Shown: positions 1,805 through 55,870 of the stretch, one piece after another
How positions within the stretch are numbered: position 1 is the stretch's first letter
Layout: each line of letters begins with the position of its first letter
Assembly: GCF_902501965.1 (NCBI RefSeq)
Contig: NZ_CABWID010000014.1
Span: 124,001-188,000, forward strand
Length of the DNA stretch: 64,000 nucleotides
Direction of reading: 5' to 3'
Source of the DNA: Collinsella sp. AK_207A
Lineage (GTDB): Bacteria > Actinomycetota > Coriobacteriia > Coriobacteriales > Coriobacteriaceae
The notes under the pieces: model-generated
Told to the model about the DNA's origin: nothing
Database searches by the model: none
What the model saw: the letters and a program-made list of their open reading frames with translations, nothing else
Made by a program: the position numbers and the translations under genes

Positions 1805-4369
1805 ATGAGCGACATCATCTCTCGCGAGGTGCCCACCTATGATGCGCGGGCCATCGAGTCCCGCTGGATGAAGACGTGGGACGAGGAGAACCTCTTTGCC
1901 GTGGACACGGACCCCGCCAAGCCCAAGAAGTACGTGCTCGAGATGTTCCCGTACCCCTCGGGCGACCTGCACATGGGACATGCGCGCAACTACACCATCG
2001 GCGACGCCATGGCGCGCCAGGCCCGCATGCGCGGCTTCGATGTGCTGCACCCCATCGGCTTCGACGCCTTCGGCCTGCCTGCCGAGAACGCGGCCATCAA
2101 GCACAACACCCAGGCTGCGGCCTGGACCTACAAGAACATGGACCAGGCGCTCGCCACCATGAAGCGCATGGGCTTCTCCTACGACCTCGACCGCATGGTG
2201 AAGACCTGCGAGCCCAACTACTACAAGTGGGGCCAGTGGATCTTCGAGAAGCTGTGGGAGCGCGGGCTCGTCTACCGCAAGAAGAACCCCGTCAACTGGT
2301 GCCCCAAGTGCCAGACCGTGCTCGCCAACGAGCAGGTGACCGAGGGCCACTGCTGGCGCTGCGACTCCGAGGTGGAGAAGCGCGACCTCGAGCAGTGGTA
2401 CATCAAGATTACCGCCTACTCGCAGGAGCTGCTTGACGACCTCGAGAAGCTGCCCGGCTGGCCCGAGCGCGTGAAGCAGATGCAGGCCAACTGGATCGGC
2501 CGCTCCGAGGGCGCCGAGGTGGACTTCACCCTCTGCGACGCCGCGGGCGAGCCGACGGACACCAAGATCACCGTCTTCACCACGCGCGCCGACACGCTCT
2601 TCGGCTGCTCGTTCTTCCTGCTCGCGCCCGAGTACAAGGGCCTTGCCGAGCTTGTGGCGGGCACCGAGTACGAGGCCGCCGTCATGAAGGTCGTGGAGGA
2701 TTCCAAGCACGTCTCTGCGGTGGAGCGCGCCCAGGGCGAGCTCGAGAAGCACGGTGCCTTCACGGGCCGCTACGTGGTGAACCCGATCAACGGCGAGAAG
2801 GTTCCCGTGTGGGTGGCCGACTACGTCATCTCCGACTACGGCACCGGTGCCGTCATGGCCGTCCCCTGCGGCGACCAGCGCGACTTCGAGTTCGCCAAGA
2901 AGTACGACCTGCCCATCATCCCCATCATCCTCGCGGACGACGACCCACTCTACGCTGAGCTGAAGAACGAGCAGGGCCGCAAGGTCACCTCCGTGGACTG
3001 GGACGCCGCCATGGTGGCCGAGGGCACGCTCGTGCAGTCCGGCAAGTACACCGGCATGGAGGGCGGCAAGCACTCCGCGGGCGAGGCGGCCATCGTGGCC
3101 GACCTGGAGGCGGCGGGCTCCGGTAAGCGCTCCGTGCAGTACCGCCTGCGCGACTGGCTCATCTCCCGCCAGCGCTACTGGGGTAACCCCATCCCGGCCA
3201 TCCATTGCCCGAAGTGCGGCATCGTGCCCGTGCCGGAGGAGGACCTGCCCGTCACGCTGCCCGAGGACCTGAACCTGGGTGCCGGCGAGACGCTTGCCGA
3301 GGACAAGGACTTCTACGAGTGCACCTGTCCCCAGTGCGGTGGCCCCGCGCGCCGCGAGACCGACACCATGGACACCTTCACGTGCTCCAGCTGGTACTAC
3401 ATCCGCTACACGGACCCGCACAACGATGAGCTGCCGTTCTCCCGCGAGGCCGCCGACCGCTGGATGCCCGTGGACAACTACATCGGCGGCATCGAGCACG
3501 CCATCCTGCACCTGCTCTACAGTCGCTTCTTCACCAAGGCGCTCCGCGACATGGGGCTGCTCGACGTGGACGAGCCGTTCACCAACCTGCTCTGCCAGGG
3601 CATGGTGAAGGACGAGAACGGTGACGTCATGAGCAAGTCCAAGGGCAACGTGGTGCCGCCGTCCTCCGTTATCGAGCCCTACGGCGCCGACACGATGCGC
3701 TTGACGATCCTGTTCATCGCCCCGCCCGAGAAGGACTTCGATTGGGATACGGACGCCGTGGCCGGCGCGAACCGCTTCATCAAGCGCGCTTGGCGCACCG
3801 TCTGGCAGCTCGTCGAGACGGGGACGGACGCGTCCGCCCTCGATAAGGCGGCGCTCTCCGAGGAGGGTCTGAAGCTCTACCGCGAGCGCCATCGCACGCT
3901 CGCCAAGTGCACCGAGGACTTCGACCGCCAGCAGTTCAACACCGCCATCTCCGCCATCATGGAGCTGGTGAACGCCGCGAACGCCTACCTCAACGCCGTG
4001 CCGGCGGGGGAGCGCGAGGCAGCCGACGCCGCCCTCGTCGCCCAGGTGGCCGAGGACATCGTCTGCACGCTTGCGCCCATCTGCCCGTTCGTCACCGAGG
4101 AGCTGTGGCATACGGCGCTCGGCCACACGGAGAGCGTCTACGTGGCGCCCTGGCCCACCTTCGACGCCGCGGAGGCCGCGGCCGACGAGGTCGAGATCGC
4201 CGTGCAGGTTCTCGGCAAGGTGCGCGGCCGCGCGATGGTGCCCGTCGTCGCGGATGCCGACGCCATGCGCGCCGCTGCCGAGCAGGTCGCTGCCAAGTGG
4301 CTCGAGGGCAAGACGGTCGTCAAGGCGATCTGCGTGCCCGGCAAGCTGGTGAACCTGGTCGTCAAATAG
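1805..4369 (+). CDS. leuS: Leucyl-tRNA synthetase
   Basis: This cytoplasmic class I aminoacyl-tRNA synthetase charges tRNA-Leu and is 854 residues long, normal for bacterial LeuRS. The HIGH-type signature appears as HMGH (residues 56-59) and the KMSKS loop as VMSKSKG (about 608-614). A zinc-type cluster WCPKCQ...CWRC lies near 165-190. The CP1 editing domain sits in the middle, with TTRADTLFG and the later GTGAVMAVP. The C-terminal anticodon-binding domain ends VNLVVK. It starts 29 bp after guaB. A large palindrome begins 11 bp after the stop codon. Confidence 0.97.
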
Positions 4370-4380
4370 GCGATCCCACG

Positions 4381-4603
4381 GGGGAACCACAGCGGCGCGG
4401 CCGTCGCGGTTCCCCTGTGGACCTGAAGAGCGAGCTGAGAAAACTTCGGCGTAAACCCCAGGAACGAACCGCGGTATCGTGTCCCCTTACAAGCGTGGGC
4501 GCGATGTCGTTCGGTTCGTTCCTGCGGTTTTGCCCCATAGTTTTCCAGTTTCGCGAATCGGTCCGTCAAGGGAACCGCGACGGCCGCGCCGCTGTGGTTC
4601 CCC
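4381..4603. repeat. Long imperfect palindrome A (223 bp) between leuS and rnj
   Basis: The outer arms at 4381-4414 and 4570-4603 are perfect 34-bp inverted copies. Each arm is itself a hairpin bounded by GGGGAACC and GGTTCCC. An inner perfect 13-bp pair, CAGGAACGAACCG (4459-4471) and its complement (4512-4524), and flanking partial matches (about 4439-4458 with 4525-4545) continue the fold inwards to a small loop. The whole intergenic segment can therefore form one long stem on either strand. No protein-coding frame is convincing here. It could be a degenerate MITE-like element, a structured RNA or a transcription barrier. Confidence 0.85.
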
Positions 4604-4732
4604 TGTAGGTTTTGAGCGGGCGTGGCTGCTCTTTCAGCAAACCTGATAAAGTGAAGTATCTCCGTGAATTGGTAGGCGGCATGATCCGCCTGTACATAGA
4701 TGTTGTCGACAAGAAAGGATTTCAGCTACAAC

Positions 4733-6418
4733 ATGGCAAAAGACAACAACGCTAAGAAGAAGGCGCCGGCCCTCAAGATCATCCCGCTCGGTGGCCTCGA
4801 CGGCATCGGCAAGAACATGACGGCCTTCGAGTACGGCGACGACATGATCCTGATTGACGCCGGCCTTATGTTCCCCGATGACTCCCAGCCCGGCATCGAT
4901 CTCGTGCTGCCCGATTACACCTACGTTCTCGAGAACGAGGAGAAGCTGCGCGGCATCCTCATCACGCACGGCCACGAGGACCACATCGGCGCCCTGCCGT
5001 ATCTGCTGCAGGATCTGAACAACCGTCCCGCGATCTACTCCAGCAAGCTCACGATCGGCATGATCCAGGGCAAGCTCGAGGAGTTCAAGCTCAAGAAGCA
5101 GAAGTACCACGACGTTCACGGCGGCAGCCATGTGAACCTGGGCGCCTTCGGCGTGGACTTCATCTCCACCACGCACTCCATCCCCGGCGCGCTCGCCATC
5201 CGCCTGAAGACGCCGGCGGGCACCGTGCTCCACACCGGCGACTTCAAGCTCGACAACACGCCCATCGACGGCGTGCGCCCCGACTACGCCACGTTCTCCA
5301 AGTTCGGCCGCGAGGGCATCGACCTACTGCTCGCCGACTCCACGAACGCTGTCAAGCCGGGCTACACGCTCTCCGAGGCAGCCGTGGGGCCGCAGCTCTA
5401 CGAGGCCATCAAGAACGCGAAGGGCCGCGTGTTCGTGGCCTCGTTCTCGAGCCATATCCATCGCCTGCAGCAGATCTGCGACGCGGCCAAGAAGTGCCAT
5501 CGCAAGATCGTGGTGACGGGCCGCTCCATGCTCACCAACACCCGCGTGGCGCGCGAGCTCGGCTACCTCAAGATCGACGAGTCCGACCTGATCGATGCCT
5601 TCGAGATCGGCAATATCCCCGAGAACCAGATCGTCGTCATGTGCACGGGCTCCCAGGGCGAGCCGCTCTCCGCGCTCTCCCGCATGTCCAACGGCGAGCA
5701 CAAGACGCTCTCCATCCACGAGGGCGACACCGTGATCATCTCCGCCACCCCCGTTCCGGGCAACGAGAAGGCCGTCCAGGGCGTCATCAACAGCCTGGCC
5801 AAGCTCGGCTGCGACGTGTACGACAAGAGCCGCTGCCTGGTGCACGTCTCCGGTCACGGCAGCCAGGAGGAGCTCAAGCTCATGCTGGCCATGACGAACC
5901 CGCGCTACTTCATGCCCGTGCACGGCGAGGCCGTGCACCTGCGCGCCCACGCCCGCCTGGGCGAGCAGATGGGCATCCCGCGTGATCGCATCTTCATCAT
6001 GGACAACGGCGACTCGCTCGAGATGCGCGACCACAAGGTCAAGCGCGGTCGCTCGGTTGAGTCCGGCGTGGTCTACGTGGACGGCCTGCGCATCGGCGAC
6101 ACCGATCCCATCGTACTGCGCGACCGCCAGAAGCTCGCCTCTGACGGCATGGTCACGGCGGTGGCCGTGGTCTCCATCAAGCGCAAGAAGATCGACGCGG
6201 TGGACTTCTCCGGTCGCGGCGTCTCGTTCCCCATCGACGAGGATTTCTCGGACGACGCCGCCGAGGCGATCATGCGCACCATCGAGCGCGGCAAGTTCAA
6301 CTTCACCTCGAGCGGCTCCGACGCACTGCGCAAGGCCGTGCGCGACTCGCTCTCCAACTTCATCTGGAACCGCACCAAGACGCGTCCGATGATCATCCCC
6401 GTGGTGATGGAGGTCTAG
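4733..6418 (+). CDS. rnj: Ribonuclease J
   Basis: A metallo-beta-lactamase/beta-CASP nuclease with 5' exonuclease and endonuclease activity on mRNA and rRNA precursors, acting in the cytoplasm. The product is 561 residues. The metal-binding HxHxDH motif is HGHEDH at residues 79-84, followed by the usual TTHSIPG and LHTGDFKLD segments. The C-terminal half has CTGSQGEP and PVHGEAVHLRAHA. An ATG at 4700 is also in frame but lacks a ribosome site. The ATG at 4733 begins MAKDNNAKKK with AAAGGA upstream, so it is preferred. The stop lies 1 bp before ftsK. RNase Y is also encoded in this window. Confidence 0.95.
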   Translation: MAKDNNAKKKAPALKIIPLGGLDGIGKNMTAFEYGDDMILIDAGLMFPDDSQPGIDLVLPDYTYVLENEEKLRGILITHGHEDHIGALPYLLQDLNNRPAIYSSKLTIGMIQGKLEEFKLKKQKYHDVHGGSHVNLGAFGVDFISTTHSIPGALAIRLKTPAGTVLHTGDFKLDNTPIDGVRPDYATFSKFGREGIDLLLADSTNAVKPGYTLSEAAVGPQLYEAIKNAKGRVFVASFSSHIHRLQQICDAAKKCHRKIVVTGRSMLTNTRVARELGYLKIDESDLIDAFEIGNIPENQIVVMCTGSQGEPLSALSRMSNGEHKTLSIHEGDTVIISATPVPGNEKAVQGVINSLAKLGCDVYDKSRCLVHVSGHGSQEELKLMLAMTNPRYFMPVHGEAVHLRAHARLGEQMGIPRDRIFIMDNGDSLEMRDHKVKRGRSVESGVVYVDGLRIGDTDPIVLRDRQKLASDGMVTAVAVVSIKRKKIDAVDFSGRGVSFPIDEDFSDDAAEAIMRTIERGKFNFTSSGSDALRKAVRDSLSNFIWNRTKTRPMIIPVVMEV

Positions 6419-36839: not shown

Positions 36840-37930
36840 TCAGACGCAAGCTCATCAACTATGCGCAGGGTAGCTGCGACTTCCGTATCGGCGACGGCGC
36901 CTTGGAGGACCTCTCCAAGTTCGCTAAGTCGCTCGTCGCCGTGCCCCGCAGCGCCGTTCTCGTCACGCGGGCCGACCTGGCCGCCGGTCCCGCCGTCGCG
37001 GTCTCGCGCGGCCTGGCCGACGCCGGCTTCACGGTCCGGGACCTCTCGCTTCCCGCCGGGGAGGACGTCTGCACCGCCGCGTATGCCTTCCAGCTGCTCG
37101 AATTCCTCGAGGGCATGGCGCTGACCGCCGACGACCTGGTGGTTGCCGTGGGCGACGCGGAGGTCCTCGGCGTCGCCCAGTTCTGCGCCGGCATCTGGTG
37201 CGGGGGCACCGCCTCTCTGCTCGTGCCCACGACGCTCGATGCCATGGTCACCTGCGCCACCGCCTCGCGCGGGCTCGCCGTGGGCCCCTCCGAGCAGATG
37301 GCCTGGCTGCCCGCCCGTCCCGGCATGACGGTCTGTGACCTCTCCTTCGTGCGCGAGGCTAGCGCCGAGGAGAACCGTTTGGGTTACGTTCAGCTCATCG
37401 CCTCCGCCATGATGCAGAGCCGCCGCTCGTGGGAGCAGCTCGCCGAGAAGCTGTCCGACATCCTAGCCTCCGACGAGCTCTCGCTCATCGAGGCGGTGAA
37501 CGACGCCCAGACCTCCCGCCTCTCCGTCGTCAAGGCTCCGAGCCTCTCCGGTAAGAGCGCGCTGCTCTACGGCGAGACCACGGCCCGCGCCCTGCGCTCC
37601 CTTCTCGGCCCCGAGGCTCCCTGGTGGCACCTCCTCGCCGAGGGCATGCGCTTCGAGGCGCGCCTGGGCGTGGAGGCCGGCAAGCTCGATGCGGACGACA
37701 TGTTCGACCAAGACGACCTCCTGGACGAGGTCGGCGCCGAGGAGCTTCCCTTCGACGTGGCCCCCGAGGCGTTCATCGAGGCGCTCCGCGCCGCCCGCTT
37801 CAAGCGGTCCAACCGCTTCATGCTCGCCATCCCCCAGAGCGTGGGCACCGTGCGCCTGACCGTGCTCGAGGAGGACGTGCTCGAGCGCCACGCCCGTGCG
37901 TACGTGGCCAGCAGGGCGGAGCTCCTGTAG
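36836..37930 (+). CDS. Dehydroquinate-synthase-like protein lacking catalytic residues
   Basis: This 364-residue protein has the length and overall pattern of 3-dehydroquinate synthase and follows a shikimate kinase with a 4-bp overlap, the aroK-aroB arrangement. The key motifs are missing, however. The NAD-binding GGGVVGDLAGF is replaced by VGDAEVLGVAQF. The Lys of SSVGGKTAID is absent. No zinc-binding H-x3-H appears where LYGETTARALRS stands. A true AroB exists at 52432-53529. It is therefore probably a pseudoenzyme, perhaps regulatory or structural. It is an intact frame with normal codon use, which argues for retained function. Confidence 0.7.
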   Translation: MIRRKLINYAQGSCDFRIGDGALEDLSKFAKSLVAVPRSAVLVTRADLAAGPAVAVSRGLADAGFTVRDLSLPAGEDVCTAAYAFQLLEFLEGMALTADDLVVAVGDAEVLGVAQFCAGIWCGGTASLLVPTTLDAMVTCATASRGLAVGPSEQMAWLPARPGMTVCDLSFVREASAEENRLGYVQLIASAMMQSRRSWEQLAEKLSDILASDELSLIEAVNDAQTSRLSVVKAPSLSGKSALLYGETTARALRSLLGPEAPWWHLLAEGMRFEARLGVEAGKLDADDMFDQDDLLDEVGAEELPFDVAPEAFIEALRAARFKRSNRFMLAIPQSVGTVRLTVLEEDVLERHARAYVASRAELL

Positions 37931-37934
37931 CGTT

Positions 37935-38130
37935 CCGCCGCGGTCCCCGGACGACCTCTCCGCCTTCTTGCGAGACCGGAAATCCCTCCAGCGAACCCGC
38001 AGGAAACGTATGAGCGAACACGTGCCCGGCTCTCCCAGCGAGCACCGGGCCGCGTTCGTTTCCTGGAGTTCGCCGGAGGGATTTCTCAGTTCGGTCGAAA
38101 GGCTCCGCGGCCGTCCAGGGTCCGCGGCGG
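37935..38130. repeat. Long imperfect palindrome B (196 bp)
   Basis: The outer arms at 37935-37953 (CCGCCGCGGTCCCCGGACG) and 38112-38130 pair at 17 of 19 positions. A middle pair, AAATCCCTCCAGCGAAC (from about 37980) with its near-complement ending near 38085, and AGGAAACG with CGTTTCCT, continue the stem. A central CGAACACGTGCCCGG/CCGGGCCGCGTTCG closes the loop. It lies between the DHQS-like gene and the peptidase and has no convincing coding frame. Architecture resembles palindrome A, and both have GTTCGTT(T)CCTG near the right centre. Confidence 0.8.
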
Positions 38131-38189
38131 CACCTCCGGGAAACTCGTATTAGAATCGTGGACGTCATTGTCGTGGAAAGGACTTTACG

Positions 38190-55640: not shown

Positions 55641-55870
55641 CGCGATACTTTATCGGTTTATTGCGGCGCGGAAGAAAGCAGGCCGATACTTTATCGGTTT
55701 TCGATGGGCGCACCGGGTATCGCTCACTCTGACGCGCGTCTAACCTGATGTTTTATCTCCGAGCATCGTGTTCCTACTCATCGGGAGCCCGAAAACCGAT
55801 AAAGTATCGGCCTGCTTTTTCTTGTTACGCGTTGAACCAATAAACTATCGTCGAGTTTTCGGCTAAGCAG
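55625..55870. repeat. Long imperfect palindrome C with iterated CCGATA-CTT-TATCGG units
   Basis: A perfect 29-bp inverted repeat lies at 55675-55703 and 55790-55818. Its core is CCGATACTTTATCGG, itself a palindrome. Outside it, a second pair (about 55633-55672 and 55821-55862) matches at most positions and carries another copy, GCGATACTTTATCGG, and a degenerate one, CCAATAAACTATCG. Thus four related 15-bp palindromes are placed symmetrically in one large palindrome upstream of the aro operon. It could be an operator array, structured RNA or mobile-element remnant. No coding frame is convincing. Confidence 0.8.

What the first reader, a model, noticed from the sequence alone, without database searches (positions are those of the whole stretch)
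4381..4603. A 223-bp nested palindrome fills the leuS-rnj gap
Seen: two 34-bp arms are perfect inverted copies and each arm is also a hairpin of its own. A 13-bp inner pair continues the fold. Perfect arms over 150 bp apart in non-coding DNA imply either recent origin or selection for base-pairing. It sits just before RNase J, whose product is a plausible processor of long structured RNA, so autoregulation is one possibility.
Basis: partly seen in the sequence, partly recalled or inferred. Interest (0 to 1): 0.7.

Follow-up and report, generated by a model that had tools for sequence, protein, structure and literature searches.

The report
Nested palindrome family at gene ends
The palindrome between leuS and rnj is one of about 41 nested palindromes that sit just after stop codons across this genome, each with its own private but almost perfectly matched arms, which suggests that one arm is repeatedly recopied from the other at the DNA level.

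Summary
The 34-bp arms (4381-4414, 4570-4603) are perfect, and the whole segment folds as one hairpin (z -17). It is not unique. Covariance and pattern searches found 41 related elements in this genome: 21 with a long core of nearly fixed length (134-138 nt) and 20 with a 41-nt core. All share a basal motif (sense strand GTCCTCGCGAGACTGG...CAGTTCGCTGCGGA), while outer arms are private to each locus yet self-complementary (1007 Watson-Crick pairs, 12 G-U, 12 A-C, 10 other). Thirty-nine lie within 110 nt downstream of a stop codon. Neither subfamily turned up in 44 sister species, but a related class occurs in 41 of 45 species of the genus and mainly in this family. At the groEL terminator position, species share the basal motif but carry completely different self-complementary arms; close species show paired substitutions and a paired one-base indel. 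Best reading: a REP-like, terminator-position nested palindrome whose arms are kept perfect by DNA-level recopying (template switching), probably serving as an mRNA 3'-end hairpin. RNase J autoregulation has no support. Mobility by the genome's single RAYT-type transposase is possible but not shown.

The parts
4375..4609 (.). whole nested palindrome (one hairpin of about 235 nt), directly after leuS
4381..4414 (+). outer left arm, 34 bp, private to this locus
   Evidence: 34/34 complementary to 4570-4603; no unambiguous relative among the other long arms
4570..4603 (+). outer right arm, exact inverted copy of 4381-4414
4426..4560 (+). long core, fixed length 134-138 nt in the full-length family members
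   Evidence: CM R1 hit C14:128426-128560; alignment A1; pair counts
4430..4444 (+). conserved basal motif, left (GCGAGCTGAGAAAAC)
   Evidence: invariant columns in A1, also in the short subfamily
4541..4556 (+). conserved basal motif, right (TTTTCCAGTTTCGCGA)
   Evidence: pattern search of own genome, 39 places with up to 2 mismatches against 5 for the reversed control
4459..4471 (+). inner stem, left (CAGGAACGAACCG)
4512..4524 (+). inner stem, right (CGGTTCGTTCCTG)
1805..4369 (+). leuS; its stop codon lies 11 nt before the arm
4733..6418 (+). rnj (RNase J), starts about 125 nt after the palindrome (an in-frame ATG at 4700 is also possible)
37919..38146 (-). second member of the long subfamily in the window (core 37964-38098), partly decayed arms
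   Evidence: CM R1 hit C14:161964-162098; folds

Best explanation
It is one copy of a multi-copy, REP-like nested palindrome that occupies the transcription-terminator position directly behind a stop codon (here leuS). SHOWN: a conserved basal motif and a core of fixed length are surrounded by outer arms whose sequence is private to each locus but almost perfectly self-complementary; a related class is spread over the genus; at groEL the arms have been completely replaced between species while staying palindromic. INFERRED: when the palindrome is single-stranded or extruded during replication, the nascent strand switches template from one arm to the other, so mutations (including indels) in one arm are copied into the other and the palindrome can grow outwards into flanking DNA, up to and sometimes over the stop codon. 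INFERRED: the transcript of the gene ends in or carries this very stable hairpin, which acts as terminator and/or 3'-end protector. The basal motif must be kept by selection or recognised by a protein, because template switching alone would erase its asymmetry.
For: 41 elements: 21 with long cores and 20 with a 41-nt core. Long-core pairing 95.9% of cells and 22 of 49 pairs with changes on both sides, 0 of 500 shuffles as high. Outer stems of 36 elements: 1007 Watson-Crick, 12 G-U, 12 A-C, 10 other, so no wobble signature of RNA drift. Thirty-nine of 41 lie within 110 nt of a stop codon, median 13 nt from stop to arm. groEL 3' ends of 40 species: simple intrinsic terminators with TTTTTGCGTT in some, long palindromes with ACGTCCTCG...CTGCGGAATGT and the tail CCTGCGTTTACG in others, arms unrelated between clades. 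In 16 close species five pairs change on both sides, none on one side only, and a 1-nt indel is present or absent in both arms together (7 and 9 species). Arms run into the neighbouring reading frame in L038 (18 nt), L058 (10 nt) and L042 (6 nt on both sides). L058 has lost the motif asymmetry: 84 of 85 bp paired, right motif replaced by the complement of the left, as a template switch through the core would produce. Template switching is documented to create and maintain stems (PMC8794818).
Against: No RNA data. Most copies in this genome lack a T-tract after the stem (the first base is T in 61%, then TGCG), so intrinsic termination is unproved. Template switching should also erase the conserved bulges, which persist in nearly all copies, so selection or a binding protein has to be added. 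How the core reached 41 loci in this lineage is not explained by template switching. The clade in A3 may recombine between species, so independent events cannot be counted well.
Confidence: 0.55

Rival explanations
1. Selection on RNA structure alone: each palindrome is a structured 3' UTR or terminator and ordinary compensatory substitution keeps the arms paired, without DNA recopying.
For: Position behind stop codons; orientation bias of the motif relative to the adjacent gene (27 against 7 outside convergent pairs); conserved internal loops; a few G-U pairs in the conserved motif on one strand (columns 15-119 and 16-118 of A1).
Against: G-U equals A-C in the arms (12 and 12); double changes and a paired indel without one-sided intermediates among species whose groEL is about 98-99% identical; 30-50 bp of near-perfect pairing is far more than a terminator needs.
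Confidence: 0.25
2. A REP/REPIN-type non-autonomous mobile element, mobilised by the single RAYT-like Y1 transposase of the genome, the basal bulged motif being its recognition hairpin.
For: Multi-copy, intergenic, lineage-specific expansion (about 41 copies here, 0-17 matches to the general class in sister species); exactly one Y1_Tnp protein in G000 (E 7e-11, 248-296 aa); conserved asymmetric bulged motif.
Against: The RAYT gene is not flanked by the elements; the nearest is about 5 kb away. No GTAG or CGTC tag at an end; the ends are not conserved. Long cores are about 59% identical, so no recent copying. The general class also occurs in species without a Y1 match (G017, G019, G025, G040).
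Confidence: 0.2
3. A conserved core inserts into pre-existing long palindromic terminators, so the outer arms are native terminator stems.
For: groEL and leuS have intrinsic terminators at this position in relatives; the element lies in the terminator position.
Against: Native terminator stems there are mostly 11-16 bp, not 30-50; in the 64-kb window no bare hairpin of that length was found except one unrelated AT-rich one; arms and inner arms vary in the same way.
Confidence: 0.12
4. cis-regulation of rnj: RNase J processes the hairpin and so controls its own expression.
For: Adjacency only.
Against: Related elements follow the stops of at least 38 other genes; rnj starts about 125 nt further on.
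Confidence: 0.03

Closest known systems
REP / REPIN / BIME repeats (GTAG and CGTC super-families, PMC3733652, PMC3116915)
   Same: intergenic palindromic repeats, mostly downstream of genes, imperfect conserved hairpin, lineage-specific amplification, possible RAYT connection
   Different: REPs are 20-40 bp with conserved sequence and an unpaired tag at one end; here the conserved part is internal, the element is about 100-250 bp, and the outer arms are private to each locus
Intrinsic (Rho-independent) terminators
   Same: same position behind the stop codon; orthologous groEL sites in sister species are plain terminators with T-tracts
   Different: stems many times longer, nested, with a repeated core, and mostly no T-tract in this genome
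ERIC and similar 100-130-bp intergenic imperfect palindromes
   Same: size of the core (126-127 nt between the motifs), intergenic, multi-copy
   Different: ERIC copies share their sequence throughout; here most paired positions differ between copies and covary (recalled from general knowledge, not tested)
Quasipalindrome template-switch mutagenesis (PMC8794818, PMC7202029)
   Same: homogenises arms of imperfect inverted repeats, gives multi-base compensatory changes
   Different: known as a mutational mechanism; not described in the papers I read as shaping one repeat family of long palindromes

Membership tests
REP (GTAG or CGTC tagged) | unpaired GTAG or CGTC tetranucleotide at one end | tested here: not met
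   ends not conserved among 36 elements; CGTC occurs only inside the paired basal motif in some copies
REP (GTAG or CGTC tagged) | short stem of 5-13 bp, unit of 20-40 bp | tested here: not met
   outer stems median 27.5 bp, spans 101-256 nt
REP (GTAG or CGTC tagged) | RAYT gene flanked by the repeat | tested here: not met
   single RAYT-like gene of G000, nearest element about 5 kb away
REP (GTAG or CGTC tagged) | downstream of coding regions | tested here: met
   39 of 41 within 110 nt of a stop codon
MITE with terminal inverted repeats (DDE type) | conserved terminal sequences shared by copies | tested here: not met
   outer arms private to each locus
MITE with terminal inverted repeats (DDE type) | target-site duplication | not tested
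   no near-identical empty site available: sister species are too distant at these sites
Intrinsic terminator | GC-rich hairpin directly behind a gene | tested here: met
Intrinsic terminator | T-tract after the stem | tested here: not met
   no T-tract in the average tail; no terminator call in 4200-4800; single copies such as L084 have TTTTT
Intrinsic terminator | terminates transcription | not testable with these tools
   needs RNA 3'-end data
Known Rfam RNA family | match above gathering score | tested here: not met
   none to the hairpins; the MIR8622 hit at 70 bits against a gathering score of 197 is a chance long-hairpin match

The most novel reading that the evidence does not exclude
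A repeat family whose arms evolve in concert by DNA recopying: the outer sequence of a palindrome is overwritten at each locus while a short basal motif is kept, so that 'covarying' stems arise largely from mutation mechanism rather than from selection on RNA, and palindromes grow out of ordinary terminators into 100-250-bp structures. This would be a natural multi-locus record of template switching in a bacterial family.
Probability: 0.45. Interest if true: 0.72.

Novelty: new variant of a known kind. Interest (0 to 1): 0.58.

Why it matters
Covariation is widely used as proof of functional RNA structure. Here there are many palindromes, and an orthologous groEL series over some 40 species, in which pairing is kept through double substitutions and a paired indel with no wobble excess, so the question how far template switching alone can produce 'RNA covariation' becomes testable. 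It also shows that gene ends in this gut-bacterial family carry very long hairpins that may set mRNA 3' ends.

Tried and rejected
Rfam: nothing. Long-core pattern in 85k species and in viral contigs: one hit in a Verrucomicrobiales contig, not a palindrome, and none in viral contigs; the short pattern gave four viral hits, not palindromes. Recent insertion of a TIR element: rejected, ends are not conserved and no two copies are close. RAYT flanked by the elements: not the case in G000. Weak CM hits in G002 and G042 are other long hairpins without the motif. The uvrC C-terminus as proof of which arm was the template: the tail is variable in relatives, so not decisive. Literature: no description found for Collinsella or Coriobacteriaceae in the held papers.

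Full report
Observation. The two 34-bp arms (4381-4414, 4570-4603) are perfect inverted copies and the 13-bp inner pair is real. As RNA, 4371-4613 folds into one hairpin of -178 kcal/mol (z -17.4). Each arm can also fold alone, but weakly. The element starts 11 nt after the leuS stop and ends about 125 nt before the likely rnj start.

A family. A search of the window's own genome with the segment gave further copies that match only the inside. Reading them showed the same architecture with different outer arms. A covariance model of six cores (A1, R1) found 21 loci in this genome and only two weak, motif-free long hairpins in 44 sister species. The core is 134-138 nt in the full-length members (128 in the decayed L057), and one member (L066, groEL) has a 74-nt core. 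A pattern search for the conserved half-site led to a second, short subfamily with a 41-nt core; model R2 and the fetched stretches give 20 loci not counted among the long ones. Total 41; two lie in the window (4375-4609 and about 37919-38146). The long-core pattern is absent from about 85,000 other species except for one chance hit that is not a palindrome.

Anatomy. Written in the sense of the adjacent gene for most copies: stop codon, outer arm, GTCCTCGCGAGACTGG, inner part, CAGTTCGCTGCGGA, inverted outer arm. The basal motif pairs imperfectly, with the same unpaired bases in nearly every copy. All other paired stretches differ between loci and covary: for the six cores 95.9% of cells pair and 22 of 49 pairs have changes on both sides, none of 500 shuffles reaching that. 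The outer stems of 36 elements hold 1007 Watson-Crick pairs, 12 G-U, 12 A-C and 10 other mismatches. Under RNA-level drift G-U should exceed A-C; it does not. Long arms are unrelated between loci, with weak GC-rich matches only; short arms are alike only near the core. Long cores are about 59% identical on average, so copying was not recent.

Position. With a codon-usage gene finder trained on four window genes (not curated annotation), 39 of 41 elements lie within 110 nt of a stop codon. Outside five convergent gene pairs the motif faces the stop in one orientation 27 times and in the other 7 times; the leuS copy belongs to the minority. The arm begins a median of 13 nt after the stop. In L038, L058 and L042 the arm runs 18, 10 and 6 nt into the reading frame, so the other arm carries an inverted copy of the gene end.

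Relatives. leuS is conserved in the genus but is followed by other genes in several sister species and in many by a short terminator. The 3' ends of groEL, fba, ilvC and rpoD carry hairpins of many kinds in sister species. One of them, used as a query, revealed a genus-wide class with the related basal motif GTCCTCGC...GCTGCGGGA. Model R3 of that class matches 41 of 45 genomes of the genus, 0-17 copies each, and in the order it is found in 64 of 249 genomes, nearly all of the same family. R3 does not match this genome's own subfamilies; the link rests on the shared motif and on the groEL site. At groEL (40 species) some species have a plain terminator with TTTTTGCGTT, others a long palindrome with ACGTCCTCG...CTGCGGAATGT and the tail CCTGCGTTTACG; this genome's groEL copy shares the motif and most of the tail (CCCTGCGTTCACG), but its arms are unrelated. 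This is the best evidence that arms are replaced in place while staying palindromic.

In close species. In 16 species whose groEL is about 98-99% identical, five pairs of the 67-pair hairpin change on both sides, none only on one side, and 7 of 16 lack one G in the left arm and one C in the right arm together. A paired indel is hard to get by stepwise compensation and natural for copying one arm from the other. Template switching as a source and keeper of stems is published (PMC8794818). One element here, L058, has lost its asymmetry: 84 of 85 bp paired, its right motif replaced by the complement of the left.

Mechanism and function. I think it most likely that these are terminator-position palindromes kept perfect and enlarged by intra-palindrome template switching, with the basal motif kept for a function or by a binding protein. 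That they end or protect transcripts is inferred from position only; in this genome most tails lack a T-tract. Spread of the core to 41 loci needs a further process. The genome has exactly one RAYT-like Y1 protein, a candidate, but no copy flanks it, and the general class also occurs in species without a Y1 match.

RNase J autoregulation rests on adjacency to one of 41 gene neighbours and is unlikely.

Limits. Gene positions around copies are predictions. No transcript data exist here. Species in the close set may recombine, so the number of independent paired events is uncertain.

Noticed in passing
window 55643-55818: A second kind of long palindrome: perfect 29-bp arms (AAAGCAGGCCGATACTTTATCGGTTTTCG) around 86 nt, with an extra direct copy of CGATACTTTATCGGTTT upstream; AT-rich, without the family motif.
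   Followed up: no
L175, L182, L174 (G031, G042, G043): RAYT-like genes in sister species have strong hairpins nearby: a perfect 38-bp palindrome (L182) and a 30/32-bp one (L174) directly downstream, a perfect 37-bp one about 1.4 kb downstream (L175). Similar TTTNGGGACGG-type palindromes follow fba in G038 (42 bp), groEL in G016 (43 bp) and uvrC in G016: a separate class of very long REP-like repeats.
   Followed up: partly
L068 (C15:60156-60467): Two short elements face each other about 170 bp apart and together form a larger inverted repeat (68 of 79 bp).
   Followed up: no
L171 (C16:12714-13007, minus strand): The only Y1/HUH transposase-like gene of this genome, RAYT-type, open frame, without flanking palindromes of the family.
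   Followed up: partly
L217 and L209 (G008, G010 groEL 3' ends): In two sister species the right arm of the groEL palindrome is missing: sequence after GCGTCCTG is replaced by unrelated DNA, so the palindrome is broken there.
   Followed up: no
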